Positions 7,386-14,847 of a DNA stretch of 64,000 bases are shown in pieces. Every line of letters begins with the position of its first letter. The first letter of the stretch is position 1. The position numbers and the translations under genes were made by a program. The notes under the pieces were generated by a model that was given only the letters and a program-made list of their open reading frames with translations, searched no databases and was not told the origin of the DNA. Source of the stretch: Flammeovirga pectinis (GTDB lineage: Bacteria; Bacteroidota; Bacteroidia; Cytophagales; Flammeovirgaceae); assembly GCF_003970675.1 (NCBI RefSeq), contig NZ_CP034562.1, forward strand, positions 1 through 64,000, given 5' to 3'.

Positions 7386-8606
7386 GTGGCAGATATACAA
7401 ACAGCAGAAGAATTAATAAAAGAACTTTATAGGCACAGAAAAGTGATACAACATCTCTTTAAGAGAAAAAATGCATCCTTTGATGAGTTGATAGAAGTTT
7501 CTGATGGAAAAGAAAAAGAAATACTTCAGGCAAATGCTAGAGGAATTATTTCTGTGCAAGAGGGAGAACCTGCAAGACTTGACGAAAGATTATTAAATTT
7601 TGTAGAAGATTTTCTTGAAATTAATGAGGATATCAGAAATTTTGAGGTAGACGAAAGTATTCGGATTCTTAAAAAGACAATTTACTTGTATGAAATAGAT
7701 GAAGATGCTAGAGAAAGAGAACGTTATTTACACCGAGTTAAACGCTATTTAAATAGTATTGGTAGAGTTATTCGTAAAAATGCAACAACATTAAGTGCTT
7801 TAGTAAAACAAGAGTATAAAACAGCGTCTTCTATTGAACTCAAGAGAATTAAAATTGAAGATCATAATGAACAAGCTGAAAAATTACTTGAACTAATTCA
7901 AAATGCAGAAGAGCTATTAGATAACCCATTTTTTAGAGTAGTTCAAGATGAAGGATTACGCGCAATTGTAAATGATTTAAGAGTAAATCATTTAACAATG
8001 GCAAGACATAATTTAATTGCTTTACGACAAGAAATTGTTCGTTTTATCAATCAAATTGCAGAGTTAGACCGTCAGCACAAAAAAATAATCCAACTTAAAA
8101 AATTCCGTGATTTATACGAATTGGAAATATGTACGAACGTAGAAGAAGTGTTCACTCATGAAGACTCTTTATTTTTCGATACTCAACTTCGTTTCCAAAC
8201 TCATTTAGACCTAGATTATCTAAGAGGAGATGAAGGTCTAGATATAATAGAAAGAGTAGCCATTCGTCGTCAGCATAAGATGAGAATGCAGTTACAGGCT
8301 GAATTAGATATTGATGATGCATTGCTAGATCCACAGCAACAGACAATGTTGCATATTGATTTTAGTAAGTTAAAGAGAGCATTCTTCCTACAATCTAATG
8401 ATCTTTTATCTTTTGTGAAATCATATGATTTTGGGAAAGAGATGAGTGAAAAACAATTCATAAAAGTGTACTGTCAGGTAGCACTAATTTTTGAAGATGA
8501 GATGGATTTTGGTTTAGCTGAAAATCCATTTGATGAAGCAAAGCACCTTGAATATGAAGGTAAACAGTTTGCTTATATCACACCAAAAAGAAAAGAAAAG
8601 AAATAA
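7386..8606 (+). CDS. mksF: MksF-like condensin subunit (JetA-like kleisin)
   Basis: Protein of 406 aa, first gene of a three-gene SMC-like operon. It is mostly helical and charged, with no catalytic motif. The N-terminus resembles a winged-helix domain (LIKELYRHRKVIQHLFKRKN), the middle (about 130-250) is coiled coil, and the C-terminus ends in a further compact domain and a basic tail (TPKRKEKK). This matches the kleisin-type subunit that bridges the SMC heads in MksBEF and Wadjet (JetA) complexes. Start is GTG at 7386; no ATG fits better. It ends 8 nt before the mksE-like gene. The assignment rests mainly on gene order and size, with weak sequence similarity. Confidence 0.75.
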   Translation: MADIQTAEELIKELYRHRKVIQHLFKRKNASFDELIEVSDGKEKEILQANARGIISVQEGEPARLDERLLNFVEDFLEINEDIRNFEVDESIRILKKTIYLYEIDEDARERERYLHRVKRYLNSIGRVIRKNATTLSALVKQEYKTASSIELKRIKIEDHNEQAEKLLELIQNAEELLDNPFFRVVQDEGLRAIVNDLRVNHLTMARHNLIALRQEIVRFINQIAELDRQHKKIIQLKKFRDLYELEICTNVEEVFTHEDSLFFDTQLRFQTHLDLDYLRGDEGLDIIERVAIRRQHKMRMQLQAELDIDDALLDPQQQTMLHIDFSKLKRAFFLQSNDLLSFVKSYDFGKEMSEKQFIKVYCQVALIFEDEMDFGLAENPFDEAKHLEYEGKQFAYITPKRKEKK

Positions 8607-8614
8607 CATTCAAC

Positions 8615-9166
8615 ATGAATATTGACCATACAAGTACAAGAAGAGTATTCGAACTGCTTAGCCGTGGACAGTTTTTAAGTGCTAATGCTATCAAATCAGA
8701 AATTAGAAAACTCTACGATGAAGTAGATGAGTTTTTTACAGGATTTGAAAGTATGTATGCACCGTTAGGCTTCCATCTAAAAAAAGGAAATAACTATTAT
8801 TACTTTTCTAGAGAAGGGGGGAAACAAACAATTGAAGAAAAAATTGAACGTTTTTACCGTTACATAGATCGTTTAGCTTTCTTTGCCACATTTGCCCCAG
8901 GATTTGGCGAAGGATTGCGCTTTTTTATAAAAGATATTGTACATAAATGTAATGTAGAGACAGATTTAAATGAGCAGTTGTCAAGGCTAGCATCAGATAA
9001 AAATATTTCTACACACGATAAAGTACGTGATTTAGTAGACGAAATGAGACGTCATGGTTTTATGGATTGTGAAGACGAAGAAAATGAAGGATTCATTGTA
9101 TTATCGTCTTATAACTACTTAAAAGATATTGTTGATTTAATAGATATTGATCCGAACAACGAATGA
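8615..9166 (+). CDS. mksE: MksE-like condensin subunit (JetB-like)
   Basis: Small 183-aa protein between the MksF-like and SMC-like genes. In MksBEF, MukBEF and Wadjet operons this slot is held by the tandem winged-helix KITE subunit. The sequence fits: an N-terminal helical domain (RRVFELLSRGQFLSANAIKSEI... region), a second helical part, and an acidic C-terminus. The motif FELLSRGQFLSAN is typical of MksE-like proteins. It overlaps the mksB-like start by 4 bases (ATGA), which implies translational coupling and fixed stoichiometry. No enzyme motif is present. Confidence 0.78.
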   Translation: MNIDHTSTRRVFELLSRGQFLSANAIKSEIRKLYDEVDEFFTGFESMYAPLGFHLKKGNNYYYFSREGGKQTIEEKIERFYRYIDRLAFFATFAPGFGEGLRFFIKDIVHKCNVETDLNEQLSRLASDKNISTHDKVRDLVDEMRRHGFMDCEDEENEGFIVLSSYNYLKDIVDLIDIDPNNE

Positions 9167-12100
9167 ATGCACCACAAACTCCAAAGAGATTCTTAAATAA
9201 ACTTGTTCTAATAAAGAGTGCTGGATTTGATTACGCTGAAGTAGATTTAAGCGGTAATGTTCACTTTGTTGGATCAAATGGATTTGGTAAAACAACTGTA
9301 CTCAGAGCAGTTTTATTCTTTTATCATGCTACTTCAGAAAAGAGAGAATTAGGGATAAAAGAGCAACAAATGTCTTTCTCGGAATATTATTTCCAAGATT
9401 TGAATGCTCGTTTAATTTATGAAATTCAAACCCCACGAGGAAAACATTGTTTAACTGTATATAAATCTGGCGGAAGATTAAAGTTTCGCTTTATAGATAC
9501 AGCTTACAATAAAAACTTTTTTATAAAAGATAGAAAAGCATGTAACCATGAAGAAGTACTTGATTTACTTTCAAAAGGAGAGGTTACTTTTTCAGATGAG
9601 ATTCGTCGTTTTGCCGATCTTAGAAAAGTAATTTATGGCGTAAGCAAGAATAATACACAGTTTAGCCTATTGCAACCATCTTTAGGAGTTAAAACTCATC
9701 AGGTTGATGGAATTCCTAAAGCGATAACAAACATCTTTAGAAGTTCTGGTTTAAAGTCAGATTATATTAAAAGAGCTATTGGAGAGGCTGCTTCTACTGA
9801 CCATGAAATGCAACCAATTTCTCTAGAAACGATAGCTAATTTTATACATGAATTTGACGATCAACTTACAGATTTTGAAGATTTTGAAAAAAATAAATCA
9901 AATGCTGAAGAAATTGTAGGTCTCGAAACAGAAATTACACAACAACTTTCTTATCAACAACGCCTTGCCAAACAAATTGGTGGAGGAGTAGCTTTAGCTG
10001 AAAAACATTTAGCCGATAGTGAAAAACTATTAGCTCGAATGCAGGTGGAAGAAAACGAGATGAAAAAGAAATATGAGTCTGCTGAAGAGGTTTATCAATC
10101 AAAAACTGCTGTTGTTAATCAAGAATTAGGTGAAGTAAAGGCTACTCTTAAAGAAATTGAGCGTAGAGAAAAAGAATATTCATCTATAACGATTTCGGGA
10201 AAAGCCTATTCAATAGAAAAATTAATTGAATTATGTGCAGAAGAACCTCGAATTAAAGATCAATTAATTTATCAACAAGAGGTAAAGCAAATGCTTGTGG
10301 CACAAACAGCTCAAGTAGAACATCTTATTGATGATCAAAAGAAATCTTTAGAACAAAAATTTACAGCTAGAAAAAGTGAATTTAACGAGGGTAAACAACT
10401 TTTAAGAGAGCAGCTTCATTCCCAAAAAGAAAAACTTAGTGGAGAGAAACAAACTGCTCTAGAGGAATTAAGAAATAAATATTTTGTTAGAGAAGGTGAA
10501 TTTAGAGTACAGCTAGATCAAGCAAAAGAATTAAAGACACGTGCTGAAGTAGCTCTAGAGATAGAAAAAGAAAAAGATTTCTCTAAAAGTTTACTTTCGG
10601 AAAGTAATACAATGAGAGTAAAGCTTTCTACAGAAATAAAAGAGCACAAACAGGCTATTCTAGAAACTGAAAATACAATAAAAAACACCAAAGAAAGACG
10701 TCGTTTAGAAGAGCAAATAATCAGAAATGAAGCAAGAAATCAACAAGCTGAATTAGAGAGACAATTAAAATTGGTTTCTGATGAAGTAGATGAATGGAAA
10801 CTTCGTCAAGAAGATTATGAGGGTACATTTAGGTCGTTTTTGGATCAAAATAAATCAGATTGGTCAGAATCAATTGGTAAAGTATGTGATGAAGAGTTAC
10901 TATCTCGTAAAGATTTAGACCCGTCTATAGTACCTGGAAATTCATTTTATGGTATTAATTTAGAAGTTGGTGCTTTAACATCAAAAGTGACTTCAACAGA
11001 TAATATTGCCACTATTTTAGAGCAAAAAGAAGCAGCTTTGGTTTCTGCTCAAATCAATTTATCGGAATTAGATAGTATAATTGATAAAAAAGTTGAAGCT
11101 CTTGTAGGTAATTATAGTAAGAAACTAGGGCAGTTGGAGCAAAAACTATCCGACCTATCTTCCAAAGTAATTCATCTAGAAACTGAACTAAAGGAAGCAA
11201 GAGAACAAGAAGCATCGATTATAGAAAAAGCGACTGTTCTAAAAGAAGCTGCTTTAGTGGAATTGAGAAGAAAATTCCGTATTACTCAAGAGGCTTGTGA
11301 TAGTATAGAAGGGAAGCTATCTGATCTTAAAGATGATCGTTGGTCGCAAGAGAACGAAACATCAGAATTATACACAAACAAGCTCAATGTATCATCTTCT
11401 GAGATTGAAACGAAAGTAGCTAAACTAGAACAAGAATGGGCTGCTTATGAAGGAGATCATGCTAAACGTATCAAAGAGCTAGAAGAAGAACGAAAAGGGC
11501 TTCTAGAAGAAAAAGGGATTGATACAGAGAAATTAGAAGAAGTTGAAATAGAGATTCAAGCTTTATTATCAAAAATAAAAGATGTTGAACAAGCACAGAT
11601 CATAAAGAGAGATTATGAAAAGGATAAAATCTATTATCTAGATGCTGCAGATGAAACACGAAATAAGAAAAAACATCAAGAAAAAGAATTAGAAAATCTT
11701 AAAGGAGATTACGATAAAGCTGTAGAAGAATACGAAGAGCAGTTAAATTACCTTGACGATAAACGAGATACTTACCGCCGTACTAAAGATCATAGCAATC
11801 ACCTTTTAAAACAGTTTAAAGCAGCTAAAGAAGAGGATGAACAAGCTTATATTAAGTTACAAAAATATTTAGATGAGGGTGCAGGTAACGTAAATGAAGC
11901 TGAAATTAATGATGGAGATTTATCATTTTTATTAACTGAATTACGTAAATCTTTAAAGGAACGTAATAGATTATCGGGTGTTTTTAAATCTAAAGGACAA
12001 ATCTTTACAGGTGTTTTCAGAAAAGAAAATCATTTAAAAATACCTACTTTATATGCTCAATCTTCTTTACAAGAATTTATTTATTTAGCTAAAAATATTC

Positions 12101-12882
12101 TTCCAAGTCTATTGGATGGAGAACGCTTAGCGCATATGAAAGACCAGTTAGAGAAGCAACATCGAGAAATTATTAGTTCAGTAGCCCGTCAAGTAAAAGA
12201 CCTTTCGGATACTTCTGATTTGATAAAAAAGATTGTAAAAGACATTAATAATGGTTTTGCAAGAAGTAACTTTGTTGGTGTTGTCAAGTCTATTGAATTA
12301 GAGTATAATGAGAACAATACACCATTATTAACTACTCTAAAAAAGATTTACCGTTTAAATCAAGATGTAGCATTTACGGATCAAGGAGATTTTTTTAAAG
12401 TGAATATTAATGCGAGTTCAAAGGATTCTCGACAGTCTGTACAGCTATTAAAAGATTTACGAAGGGTAATTAAAGACAATAATCAGAAGCAAATCACTTT
12501 AGAAGATACTTTCATGTTGCGTTTTCGAGTAATCGAAAATAATAATGATACTGGTTGGGTAGAAAAGCTATCTAATGTTGGTTCTGAAGGTACAGATGTT
12601 CTTGTAAAATCTATGATTTACATTACGCTCCTTACAGTATTCCAAGAGAATGCTTATAGAGATCAGCACGACTACTATGTTCATTGTGTAATAGACGAAG
12701 TAGGTAAATTATCAGATCGTTACTTACGTGATTTAATTCACTATACAAATTCTAAAAATATTAGATTAATTTTTGGATCTCCCAACGAGAATGATCCCTC
12801 TATATACGATCATGTTTTAAAATTAGAACGTAACTCTAAGAGTAATAAAGCAAGTATTGTCAAACTAGTAAGTGAGATGTAA
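9163..12882 (+). CDS. mksB: MksB/JetC-like SMC ATPase
   Basis: SMC-family ATPase of 1239 aa that would form the arms and heads of a DNA-loop-extruding complex. Walker A is GSNGFGKT at residues 37-44, followed by long coiled coils at about 230-560 and 650-960, with a globular hinge near 560-640. The C-terminal head has an ABC signature-like LSNVGSEGTD (about 1136-1145) and Walker B CVIDEVGK at 1175-1182, with Asp1178 and Glu1179. The degenerate signature and DEVGKL form fit MksB/JetC better than classical Smc. The family acts in chromosome organisation or, with a JetD nuclease, in plasmid restriction. No JetD gene follows; an IS4 element begins 22 nt after the stop. Confidence 0.85.
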   Translation: MNAPQTPKRFLNKLVLIKSAGFDYAEVDLSGNVHFVGSNGFGKTTVLRAVLFFYHATSEKRELGIKEQQMSFSEYYFQDLNARLIYEIQTPRGKHCLTVYKSGGRLKFRFIDTAYNKNFFIKDRKACNHEEVLDLLSKGEVTFSDEIRRFADLRKVIYGVSKNNTQFSLLQPSLGVKTHQVDGIPKAITNIFRSSGLKSDYIKRAIGEAASTDHEMQPISLETIANFIHEFDDQLTDFEDFEKNKSNAEEIVGLETEITQQLSYQQRLAKQIGGGVALAEKHLADSEKLLARMQVEENEMKKKYESAEEVYQSKTAVVNQELGEVKATLKEIERREKEYSSITISGKAYSIEKLIELCAEEPRIKDQLIYQQEVKQMLVAQTAQVEHLIDDQKKSLEQKFTARKSEFNEGKQLLREQLHSQKEKLSGEKQTALEELRNKYFVREGEFRVQLDQAKELKTRAEVALEIEKEKDFSKSLLSESNTMRVKLSTEIKEHKQAILETENTIKNTKERRRLEEQIIRNEARNQQAELERQLKLVSDEVDEWKLRQEDYEGTFRSFLDQNKSDWSESIGKVCDEELLSRKDLDPSIVPGNSFYGINLEVGALTSKVTSTDNIATILEQKEAALVSAQINLSELDSIIDKKVEALVGNYSKKLGQLEQKLSDLSSKVIHLETELKEAREQEASIIEKATVLKEAALVELRRKFRITQEACDSIEGKLSDLKDDRWSQENETSELYTNKLNVSSSEIETKVAKLEQEWAAYEGDHAKRIKELEEERKGLLEEKGIDTEKLEEVEIEIQALLSKIKDVEQAQIIKRDYEKDKIYYLDAADETRNKKKHQEKELENLKGDYDKAVEEYEEQLNYLDDKRDTYRRTKDHSNHLLKQFKAAKEEDEQAYIKLQKYLDEGAGNVNEAEINDGDLSFLLTELRKSLKERNRLSGVFKSKGQIFTGVFRKENHLKIPTLYAQSSLQEFIYLAKNILPSLLDGERLAHMKDQLEKQHREIISSVARQVKDLSDTSDLIKKIVKDINNGFARSNFVGVVKSIELEYNENNTPLLTTLKKIYRLNQDVAFTDQGDFFKVNINASSKDSRQSVQLLKDLRRVIKDNNQKQITLEDTFMLRFRVIENNNDTGWVEKLSNVGSEGTDVLVKSMIYITLLTVFQENAYRDQHDYYVHCVIDEVGKLSDRYLRDLIHYTNSKNIRLIFGSPNENDPSIYDHVLKLERNSKSNKASIVKLVSEM

Positions 12883-12911
12883 TTGCAATTTATTATAACG
12901 ATAAACATGAG

Positions 12912-14279
12912 TCATCCCTTAAATATTGGATTAAACCTGTAAATGATCTCACAACAGGATTTCCATTGATTTAAAATGACAGAAAAAGCTTTACGAAGTC
13001 TGTAGAAAGGAGATTTACTTTTCTTTGAACCAAAAATGGGGGTATATATGTTGATTAAACGTTCTACATAATGCCTCCTTTTTTGTATTATTTCCATTAA
13101 AAACTCATAAATAAGTAGGGCTATATAGAAGAGTTTTAATCGATTTTCCCATCCTTGAACTCTTATTGATTGTAAGCCAATTTCTGCTTTACAACACCTA
13201 AACATTTCTTCTACTTCCCATCTTTTCATATATGAAAAAAGCATTTCCCATGCAGTCTTTTTTGTATCTATATCAAGGTTGGTAAGTATGTAAATAGGAG
13301 ATCCTGCTCTTTTATATTCTCTGACTACAATTAACGTATACATCTGATCTCCCATTTCAGGATGTTGTACTTTTTTCCATGAAATAAGCCTTCTAGTATA
13401 CTTATTACGTTCTTTGTCATAAGTAAATTTGAAGCTCTTATTCTTCATTCCTTTGGTAATATTGTAGGTTAATCGTTTGCCTTTTTCGTCAATTAAAAAT
13501 CTCTTTCCAATCCAACGAACTAAAAATTGTTGATCAAATTCTTGAGCGAATTCTAAAAGAGTACAATTCGCATATCCTCTGTCAAATACATGTAAAACAG
13601 CTTTTTTAGATTGATTACGGATAGTTTTGAAACCATTCCATATAAAATTAGACAACCATTCTTTAAAAACACCAACCCTAGAATAAATATTAAATTCAAA
13701 AAGAGATGCTCTTTCATTCAAGGCCGTAAGTACTACTCCTTCTACTTTAAACCCAGGGACATTGATAAAACCTTTGACAGGAGAATTATAATAACCAGGT
13801 TTAATTCTTGTAAGTCTTTTGGCTTTACTACTGATAACCGCTGACAACCCTTCCAGGTATGTTGACTCATGTTTTTCCAGAACAGATCCATCCCAAATTA
13901 AAAGTGGTCGAATATTTTTTTCTTCCATCATTTTAATACGATCTAAACTTCTATTTCTAAAAAAATCAGCAATTAAATCAGTACTCCAATTTTTACTTCG
14001 TATTAGGTTACCAATTCTCTTAACTCCAGCTTTACCATGAGTACTACCAGCTAGTAGTGTACCCAATTCTGTCAGTAGAAGTGATTTTGTACTATTCCGA
14101 TTTTCTAGTAAGCAATGAAATAACTCTTGAAAAGTCTTTACCAAACGTAAATCAACAGTCTGATGAAGACTAGAGAGTAGCGATGATAAGAAATAGTCAG
14201 TTTGATGAAGAAGATAGGTTAATGGTGTAGATTTTTTACAATCTAAGATTTTTAGTAAATTAAAGGATGAATAAGCCAT
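12912..14279 (-). CDS. IS4-family transposase
   Basis: DDE transposase of 455 aa that cuts and joins the ends of its element. The first two catalytic aspartates are Asp130 (LLIWDGSVLEKH) and Asp233 (LHVFDRGYAN). The YREK signature of the IS4 group is perfect: Tyr350, Arg353, Glu357, Lys364 in YMKRWEVEEMFRCCK. All key residues are present, so the enzyme is likely active. The coding region spans nearly the whole element. Compared with the copy at 42926-44245 it differs by only a few residues (Gly278/Ala, Ile331/Met, Glu378/Gly), a sign of recent spread. Confidence 0.95.
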   Translation of the reverse strand: MAYSSFNLLKILDCKKSTPLTYLLHQTDYFLSSLLSSLHQTVDLRLVKTFQELFHCLLENRNSTKSLLLTELGTLLAGSTHGKAGVKRIGNLIRSKNWSTDLIADFFRNRSLDRIKMMEEKNIRPLLIWDGSVLEKHESTYLEGLSAVISSKAKRLTRIKPGYYNSPVKGFINVPGFKVEGVVLTALNERASLFEFNIYSRVGVFKEWLSNFIWNGFKTIRNQSKKAVLHVFDRGYANCTLLEFAQEFDQQFLVRWIGKRFLIDEKGKRLTYNITKGMKNKSFKFTYDKERNKYTRRLISWKKVQHPEMGDQMYTLIVVREYKRAGSPIYILTNLDIDTKKTAWEMLFSYMKRWEVEEMFRCCKAEIGLQSIRVQGWENRLKLFYIALLIYEFLMEIIQKRRHYVERLINIYTPIFGSKKSKSPFYRLRKAFSVILNQWKSCCEIIYRFNPIFKG

Positions 14280-14340
14280 TGGAATAATAGTTATAGTTGT
14301 TTAGTATTTACAATAACTATTTTTTGGCTTATAAATAAAA

Positions 14341-14388
14341 ATGAGTCACCCCTTATTATTAAAATTATATAATTAAGGGATGACTCAT
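14341..14388. repeat. Subterminal palindrome at the IS right end (copy 1)
   Basis: ATGAGTCACCCCTTA at 14341-14355 is the inverse of TAAGGGATGACTCAT at 14374-14388 with one mismatch, giving a 15-bp hairpin with A and T runs outside. The outer arm is the terminal repeat itself, so the right end carries a second inverted copy of the tip. Lying upstream of the transposase start, it could stop transcripts entering from the tRNA operon. Confidence 0.75.
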
Positions 14389-14415
14389 GTTTTTGATTTC
14401 CGAAATCATAAATAT

Positions 14416-14445: not shown

Positions 14446-14453
14446 AATTTTTG

Positions 14454-14526
14454 TGGTGATGGGCGGATTCGAACCGCCGACACACGGATTTTCAGTCCGA
14501 TGCTCTACCAACTGAGCTACATCACC
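14454..14526 (-). tRNA. tRNA-Phe(GAA), fourth in transcript order
   Basis: A 73-nt cloverleaf on the minus strand with acceptor GGTGATG/CATCACC, D-arm GCTCAGTTGGTAGAGC, anticodon loop CTGAAAA (anticodon GAA) and T-arm GGCGG-TTCGAAT-CCGCC. CCA is not encoded. Base pair 27-43 is a U-U mismatch, shared by all four copies. Confidence 0.97.
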
Positions 14527-14560
14527 GGAAACTATTTATAGTCTGTTATCTTAGACTTTG

Positions 14561-14633
14561 TGGTGATGGGCGGATTCGAACCGCCGACACACGGATTTTC
14601 AGTCCGATGCTCTACCAACTGAGCTACATCACC
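14561..14633 (-). tRNA. tRNA-Phe(GAA), third in transcript order
   Basis: Same sequence as the copy at 14454-14526, exactly 107 bp further along. A 34-bp spacer almost identical between copies separates the genes. Confidence 0.97.
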
Positions 14634-14667
14634 AGAAACTATTTATAGTCTGTTATCTTAGACTTTG

Positions 14668-14740
14668 TGGTGATGAGTGGATTCGAACCACCGACACACG
14701 GATTTTCAGTCCGATGCTCTACCAACTGAGCTACATCACC
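14668..14740 (-). tRNA. tRNA-Phe(GAA), variant T-arm
   Basis: As its neighbours, but the T stem reads GGTGG/CCACT instead of GGCGG/CCGCC. The middle C-G pair has become T-A by two matching changes, and the first pair has become a G-U wobble. The cloverleaf is therefore intact and the gene is probably functional. Anticodon GAA is unchanged. Confidence 0.96.
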
Positions 14741-14774
14741 AGAAACTATTTATAGTCTGTTATCTTAGACTTTG

Positions 14775-14847
14775 TGGTGATGGGCGGATTCGAACCGCCG
14801 ACACACGGATTTTCAGTCCGATGCTCTACCAACTGAGCTACATCACC
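14775..14847 (-). tRNA. tRNA-Phe(GAA), first in transcript order
   Basis: The promoter-proximal copy of the array, identical to the first and second listed copies. It lies about 40 nt downstream of a strong promoter match on the minus strand. Confidence 0.97.

What the first reader, a model, noticed from the sequence alone, without database searches (positions are those of the whole stretch)
7386..12882. Mks/Wadjet-like SMC operon without the JetD nuclease gene
Three tightly coupled genes (8-nt gap, then 4-nt overlap) encode a kleisin-like, a MksE-like and an SMC-like protein with intact Walker A (residues 37-44) and Walker B (1176-1179). In Wadjet plasmid-defence systems a fourth gene, jetD, supplies the nuclease that cuts circular plasmids. 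Here the next unit is a tRNA array on the opposite strand. Without the IS4 element only about 50 bp would separate mksB from the tRNA terminator, so there is no room for a lost jetD unless a larger deletion occurred. The operon is thus either a chromosome-organising MksBEF complex or a defence module relying on an unlinked nuclease. The SMC protein is long (1239 aa).
Basis: partly seen in the sequence, partly recalled or inferred. Interest (0 to 1): 0.72.

Follow-up and report, generated by a model that had tools for sequence, protein, structure and literature searches.

The report
Nuclease-free Mks condensin operon, Flammeovirga
This is an intact three-gene DNA-handling machine of a kind that, in most of its relatives, carries a nuclease and destroys plasmids; here the operon has no nuclease gene in any of the nine Flammeovirga genomes examined, so it most likely helps organise the bacterium's own DNA, as a similar one does in Pseudomonas.

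Summary
In detail: mksF-mksE-mksB at 7386-12882, gaps +8 and -4, Walker motifs intact, no fourth gene. MksE and MksB match their Pfam families; the MksF model's best PDB hits are from MukF/MukBEF entries. All 9 Flammeovirga genomes searched keep the operon (77-97% MksB identity), none with a nuclease gene after mksB. G005 lacks the IS and shows no lost jetD. No JetD/MksG-like gene was found elsewhere in the window's genome. Smc and ScpA are present. Selection is purifying (dN/dS 0.015-0.041 against G005). Of 90 MksB rows, 63 have a fourth gene, a short topoisomerase-VI-A-like MksG; Flammeovirga, two other family genera and a Persicobacter form a clade without it. Three Flammeovirga also carry a separate four-gene MksBEFG. 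Best reading: a second, nuclease-free condensin acting on the cell's own DNA, like P. aeruginosa MksBEF. It is a new member of a known kind; function is inferred, not shown.

The parts
7386..8606 (+). mksF, kleisin subunit, 406 aa, GTG start
   Evidence: No Pfam family above cut-off, no PADLOC or NCBIfam match. AlphaFold model from 57 sequences (pLDDT 81.5): the five best PDB matches are chains of MukBEF, MukE-MukF or MukF entries, E 2.2e-4 to 1.4e-2. The frame opens with GTG in 9 of 9 genomes.
8615..9166 (+). mksE, KITE subunit, 183 aa
   Evidence: PF21980 MksE, 120.3 bits against cut-off 27.
9163..12882 (+). mksB, SMC ATPase, 1239 aa
   Evidence: PF12128 DUF3584, 193 bits over residues 25-1210; 77-97% identical orthologs in the 8 other Flammeovirga genomes.
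9271..9294 (+). Walker A of MksB (residues 37-44, GSNGFGKT)
   Evidence: Alignment A1; regex match in 89 of 90 MksB rows.
12688..12699 (+). Walker B of MksB (residues 1176-1179, VIDE)
   Evidence: D1178 and E1179 invariant in the 8 rows of A1.
12906..14389 (.). IS element between mksB and the tRNA-Phe array; transposase 12912-14279 (-)
   Evidence: 17-bp inverted repeat read by eye; G005 lacks the element; PF01609 24.2 bits.
14453..14847 (-). four tRNA-Phe genes, the next unit downstream
   Evidence: ARAGORN; a tRNA-Phe array lies downstream of mksB in 5 of 9 genomes: window, G003, G005, G006, G010.

Best explanation
The operon encodes an MksBEF complex: an SMC motor (MksB) whose heads are bridged by the kleisin MksF, with MksE subunits on the kleisin. 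By analogy with MukBEF and Wadjet it would hydrolyse ATP to load on DNA and extrude loops. Without MksG/JetD it would not cut what it extrudes. Its most likely substrate is the cell's own DNA (Flammeovirga has two chromosomes, some strains also plasmids), and its most likely job is a second layer of compaction or segregation beside Smc, as for P. aeruginosa MksBEF. Shown: genes, motifs, families, absence of a recognisable nuclease, conservation in the genus, purifying selection, co-presence of Smc and ScpA (ScpB was not searched). Inferred: complex assembly, loop extrusion, chromosomal role.
For: Families and fold. Vertical inheritance: present in 9 of 9 Flammeovirga genomes; the upstream moxR-like gene is near in 8 of 9 loci. 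The unit seems to end after mksB: the scan finds a terminator-like site in the mksB direction just after it in 4 of the 8 other genomes; see evidence against. dN/dS against G005: F 0.041, E 0.015, B 0.034. No nuclease in the window's genome. Smc and ScpA over their cut-offs in 18 of 18 family genomes. Clade without MksG: support 98 for Flammeovirga+G017+G016 and 99-100 for the wider clade in two trees. No MksG remnant in a six-frame scan of the 24 no-MksG loci (best E 0.93); the two partial genes scanned beside them scored. Precedent: PMC10586767 (passages) says P. [quoted passage not shown]
Against: No functional data. In G017 no mksF was found beside mksEB, odd for an obligate complex. A match occurs in only 4 of 8 genera of the family, one of them (G014) a doubtful SMC-like relative, so it is not essential family-wide. 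The scan finds no terminator in the mksB direction in 4 of the 8 other genomes; there I see only looser inverted repeats by eye. The root of the tree is unknown, so 'lost' against 'never had' mksG is open. A nuclease of an unrelated family would be missed.
Confidence: 0.72

Rival explanations
1. Nuclease-free defence: the complex extrudes or compacts small foreign circles and silences or mis-segregates them without cutting, in the manner of eukaryotic Smc5/6.
For: Most MksB relatives in the tree are MksG-linked (63 of 90 rows). Patchy presence among genera of the family (4 of 8).
Against: Present in all 9 Flammeovirga genomes and strongly constrained. The same genus separately carries a typical four-gene system in 3 of 9 genomes.
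Confidence: 0.13
2. Wadjet-type defence served by an unlinked nuclease.
For: G006, G008 and G009 carry an MksG in a second operon that could in principle be shared.
Against: No JetD_C and no MksG homolog in the window's genome, and no MksG in 5 of the 8 other Flammeovirga genomes. The two MksB kinds are only 25-28% identical.
Confidence: 0.07
3. A decaying Wadjet operon that lost jetD and is on its way out, with the IS as a sign of decay.
For: IS next to mksB, hairpin after mksB gone. One diverged relative lacks mksF.
Against: All three frames intact, dN/dS 0.015-0.041 against G005; MksB without internal stops in all 9 Flammeovirga genomes.
Confidence: 0.03

Closest known systems
Pseudomonas aeruginosa MksBEF (nuclease-free, chromosomal)
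   Same: A MksBEF without JetD that is held to act on the chromosome (PMC10586767 passages), in a bacterium that also has SMC (PMC7485682, start of abstract in the listing and passages).
   Different: Its sequence was not fetched or compared here. P. aeruginosa PA14 is also shown with a four-gene mksFEBG operon (PMC10123090 passages). The Flammeovirga set belongs to a mainly Bacteroidota group whose members mostly carry a short MksG.
MksBEFG / Wadjet (JetABCD)
   Same: Gene order F-E-B, PF21980 and PF12128 matches, intact ATPase motifs.
   Different: No JetD/MksG in the operon or found elsewhere in the genome; PADLOC JetB and JetC models match only at 19 and 15.4 bits and JetA not at all.
Four-gene MksBEF with short DUF7281-type MksG (e.g. 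the second operons of G006, G008, G009)
   Same: 25-28% identical MksB, same gene order.
   Different: Carries a ~285-aa fourth gene with invariant E153, D203 and D205 (62 of 62); modelled fold closest to topoisomerase VI A.
E. coli MukBEF
   Same: The MksF model is closest to MukF in the PDB.
   Different: MukBEF is said to have replaced Smc-ScpAB in its hosts (PMC10586767 passages); here Smc and ScpA are present.

Membership tests
MksBEF / MukBEF-type condensin | Adjacent kleisin, KITE and SMC genes | tested here: met
MksBEF / MukBEF-type condensin | KITE subunit of the MksE family | tested here: met
   PF21980 120.3 bits against 27.
MksBEF / MukBEF-type condensin | SMC ATPase of the MksB kind with intact Walker A/B | tested here: met
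   PF12128 193 bits; motifs.
MksBEF / MukBEF-type condensin | Kleisin of MukF fold | tested here: met
   Five best Foldseek PDB hits come from MukBEF, MukE-MukF or MukF entries, two below E 1e-3; global TM only about 0.3. No sequence-profile match.
MksBEF / MukBEF-type condensin | Acts on the chromosome | not testable with these tools
   Needs Hi-C or segregation assays.
Wadjet / MksBEFG | JetD/MksG nuclease in the operon | tested here: not met
   Absent in 9 of 9 Flammeovirga orthologous loci.
Wadjet / MksBEFG | JetD/MksG nuclease elsewhere in the window's genome | tested here: not met
   Searches found the three known operons in G006, G008 and G009; the PF23947 model missed the one in G006.
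Wadjet / MksBEFG | Match to PADLOC JetA/B/C models | tested here: inconclusive
   JetB 19 bits, JetC 15.4 bits, JetA none. The four-gene paralogs tested are also weak: JetB 24.3, JetC 13 bits, JetA none, so the models do not discriminate here.
Smc-ScpAB | TIGR02168 over cut-off | tested here: not met
   MksB 21.5 bits against 567.35; the genome's Smc scores 976 bits.

The most novel reading that the evidence does not exclude
A MksBEF lineage has been fixed, without a nuclease, as a second condensin in a Bacteroidota clade, independently of P. aeruginosa, and in Flammeovirga, a genus with two chromosomes, it helps organise or co-segregate both. Some species hold both the nuclease-free complex and a mobile nuclease-bearing cousin, a natural side-by-side test of how a plasmid-cutting SMC becomes a chromosome-keeping one (or the reverse).
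Probability: 0.35. Interest if true: 0.6.

Novelty: new member of a known kind. Interest (0 to 1): 0.42.

Why it matters
Whether chromosomal Muk/Mks condensins descend from plasmid-defence complexes is not resolved (PMC10586767, passages). Flammeovirga offers nuclease-free and nuclease-bearing versions in one genus, both together in 3 of the 9 genomes searched, with a phylogeny around them. That makes the question testable outside the few model organisms. It also warns that an MksBEF-like operon should not be counted as Wadjet without its nuclease.

Tried and rejected
IS-mediated loss of jetD: rejected, since G005 has no IS, no jetD, and a terminator-like site just after mksB. Linked nuclease downstream in other genomes: the 1397-1417-aa gene after mksB in four genomes is, in the one tested (L026), a Reg_prop/SpoIIE sensor protein. 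RecN/SbcC/Smc assignment of the large protein: rejected. Sequence-profile searches of the PDB with the MksF, MksB, MksE and MksG alignments gave no useful match (apolipoprotein, ribosomal and other chance hits). The PF23947 phylum scan rang nowhere, and one search showed that this model misses the G006 MksG, so it is not used as evidence of absence. The Bacteroidaceae survey failed: one search covered 86 genomes of another family, found nothing and shows nothing. The comparison of columns conserved in MksG-bearing sets but changed in no-MksG sets gave no clear docking-like patch: many head positions differ in the Flammeovirga clade while the Bacteroides/Phocaeicola clade keeps most of them, so no docking site is claimed. 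The signature-motif regex was too narrow and is not used. My first reading of a hairpin with T run after mksB in all 8 other genomes (by eye) was only half borne out: the scan found a site in the mksB direction in 4 of 8 (found; not found: 97, 98, 100, 103). L033 (G014) was kept in the trees but is not counted in the nuclease-free clade, because it has a long branch, no regular Walker A, and no mksE or mksF match beside it.

Full report
What is there. Three + strand genes lie at 7386-8606, 8615-9166 and 9163-12882, spaced +8 and -4 nt. The second is MksE (PF21980, 120.3 bits, cut-off 27), and the third is a DUF3584/MksB-type SMC (PF12128, 193 bits over nearly its whole length) with intact Walker A and B. 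The first matches no sequence family above a cut-off. Its AlphaFold model (57 sequences, mean pLDDT 81.5, pTM 0.44) has as its best five PDB hits chains from MukBEF, MukE-MukF and MukF entries (E 2.2e-4 to 1.4e-2, global TM about 0.3). The two MukBEF chains are 431-440 residues long, which I take to be MukF. Kleisin is thus well supported, though not by global superposition.

Where it is. Contig names returned for relatives are Flammeovirga. Contig lengths let me equate G004 with F. aprica JL-4, G006 with F. pacifica WPAGA1, G007 with strain OC4 and G009 with strain EKP202. The window's genome (6,680,108 bases, 3 contigs, the first 5,207,776) fits the replicon sizes printed for strain L12M1 (5.21, 1.41 and 0.06 Mb) in PMC8653839 (passages); this is an inference from sizes. 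That paper reports a second chromosome in all complete Flammeovirga genomes it analysed.

No nuclease here. In all 9 Flammeovirga genomes searched the operon is present, with full-length MksB of 77-97% identity in the 8 others. The moxR-like gene upstream in the window is near the operon in 8 of 9 loci; in L024 (G008) no window neighbour was found in the 19-kb stretch held. Downstream is a tRNA-Phe array in 5 of 9 (window, G003, G005, G006, G010) and a 1397-1417-aa gene in the other 4, which in L026 is a Reg_prop/SpoIIE sensor. The scan finds a terminator-like site in the mksB direction just after mksB in 4 of the 8 other genomes: G005, G007, G009 and G010. In G003, G004, G006 and G008 it finds none in that direction; I see inverted repeats there by eye that do not meet its rules. 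G005, the closest (97%), shows the site without the IS, and no fourth gene is there. The window has no such site beside its IS, so the IS did not insert cleanly. Genome-wide, JetD_C gives no hit in the window's genome (the control Corynebacterium glutamicum rang). Among the 18 family genomes JetD_C hits only G006, as a 91-aa open frame at an unrelated place. A single MksG protein and a 25-sequence MksG profile find only the three second operons of G006, G008 and G009 among the 18.

The cousin with a nuclease. G006, G008 and G009 carry a second operon, mksF-E-B plus a 282-285-aa gene overlapping mksB by 1 nt. That gene matches PF23947 DUF7281 at 27.6-37.4 bits (cut-off 27); JetD_C is below its cut-off in two of them and absent in the third, and PADLOC JetD models give at most 25.5 bits in the two tested. 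Its model (pLDDT 88.3) is closest to topoisomerase VI A and Spo11 (the nine best hits are topoisomerase VI, Spo11 or an entry titled intact type II topoisomerase, E 6.6e-6 to 2.1e-3), the fold reported for MksG (PMC10123090, passages). In 62 of 62 such fourth genes E153, D203 and D205 are invariant; calling these the Toprim residues is my reading of the motif. For the two genome pairs that involve G006, synonymous difference (pS) of mksB is 0.79-0.81 in the three-gene operon but 0.36-0.46 in the four-gene one, which points to horizontal movement of the four-gene set. For the third pair (G008-G009) it is 0.36 against 0.43, so that pair does not show it.

Relatives. The genome-contig scan kept the best 80 loci of a capped list. 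With the loci from whole genomes I screened 105 sequences; 95 yielded an MksB by profile. The 10 that did not were the phylum-sample loci L079-L088. After removal of 5 duplicate Flammeovirga loci, 90 rows, the window included, entered the tree: 63 with MksG (two of them partial genes), 24 without, and 3 cut by a contig end. Because the scan keeps the best matches only, these proportions are of this set, not of nature. Flammeovirga (9), G017, G016 and a Persicobacter, with a Microscilla row that is cut, form one clade without MksG: 100 in FastTree (inner nodes 98 and 92) and 99 in a mixture-model tree of 38 chosen rows (inner nodes 98 and 95). The doubtful L033 joins this clade in both trees (98 and 96). 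A second clade without MksG is Bacteroides/Phocaeicola (6 rows plus 1 cut), and five other rows without it are scattered. The two labels need 7 and 8 changes on each tree; these cannot tell gain from loss, because the root is not known. A six-frame search of the no-MksG loci found no MksG remnant. Caveat: G017 has no mksF beside mksEB.

Phylum sample. MksE was found in 42 of 296 genomes and JetD_C in 39 of 296. Of the 42, 25 have JetD_C within 20 kb on the same contig, 9 have it on another contig or further away, and 8 have none. Of those 8, G000 is the window's genome. G019, G029 and G203 carry a 263-317-aa gene in the same gene string: G203's hits DUF7281 and G029's hits JetD_C, both below cut-off, and G019's hits nothing in Pfam. 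G270 has an SbcC-like SMC followed by an outer-membrane protein gene and no fourth gene in line. G174's contig ends soon after mksE, and G246 and G250 were not looked at. So a nuclease-free MksBEF looks like the exception in this sample.

Function. dN/dS of the window against G005 is 0.041 (F), 0.015 (E) and 0.034 (B): the genes are kept under selection without a nuclease. Smc and ScpA over their cut-offs occur in 18 of 18 family genomes; ScpB was not searched. The nearest described parallel is P. aeruginosa MksBEF, which a review calls a likely product of JetD loss with a role in chromosome organisation (PMC10586767, passages), whereas C. glutamicum MksBEFG acts on plasmids and not on the chromosome (PMC7083940, passages). 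P. aeruginosa PA14 is also shown with a four-gene operon (PMC10123090, passages). I therefore commit to a second, nuclease-free condensin acting on the cell's own replicons, at 0.72. Loop extrusion, assembly and the chromosomal role are inferred.

Novelty. Searches for Flammeovirga with condensin (3 papers; I read passages only of PMC13342612, where Flammeovirga is named for its multipartite genome and the term Mks had 0 hits), MksBEF with Bacteroid (2 papers, one read in passages), Wadjet with JetD and Bacteroid (2 papers, listing only) and DUF7281 (none) showed me no description of this complex. The library is open-access papers only. The kind is known, so I file it as a new member of a known kind.

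Noticed in passing
L105, L119, L121, L127, L139, L150 (Bacteroides/Phocaeicola), also L104 (B. fragilis S82): MksBEF operons without MksG in Bacteroides/Phocaeicola. PMC10197239 (passages) reports that no known condensin was found in Bacteroides caecimuris although its Hi-C map shows a secondary diagonal; the control genome Bacteroides ihuae did not ring for ScpA. How common the operon is in the group was not established (one search failed).
   Followed up: partly
L034:7850-8698, L035:6697-7554, L036:7782-8633: In the four-gene operon mksG differs more than mksB for the two pairs with G006 (pS 0.75-0.76 against 0.36-0.46), as if the nuclease gene had been exchanged or diversified apart from the rest.
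   Followed up: no
L037 about 9059-9295 (G006 C1:385058-385294): A 91-aa open frame matching the end of JetD_C (54 bits), possibly a remnant of another Wadjet system in F. pacifica.
   Followed up: partly
G004 C27:3-257 and C103:3-257 (L016, L017): Two contig-end fragments with the same score and coordinates, of a further mksB-like gene (47% identity, query residues 7-93) in F. aprica.
   Followed up: no
window 12906-14389: IS element between mksB and tRNA-Phe; the terminator-like site seen after mksB in G005 is missing, so mksB transcripts may run into the IS.
   Followed up: partly
L031 (G017): mksE and mksB without a recognisable mksF beside them.
   Followed up: no
L034:14130-15167: A YhcG-type PDDEXK nuclease gene (PF06250) directly upstream of the four-gene mks operon in G009, suggesting a defence island.
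   Followed up: no
L079:8779-13954 (G203): Different layout on one strand: 887-aa gene, 263-aa gene with a weak DUF7281 match, 398-aa gene, then MksE.
   Followed up: no
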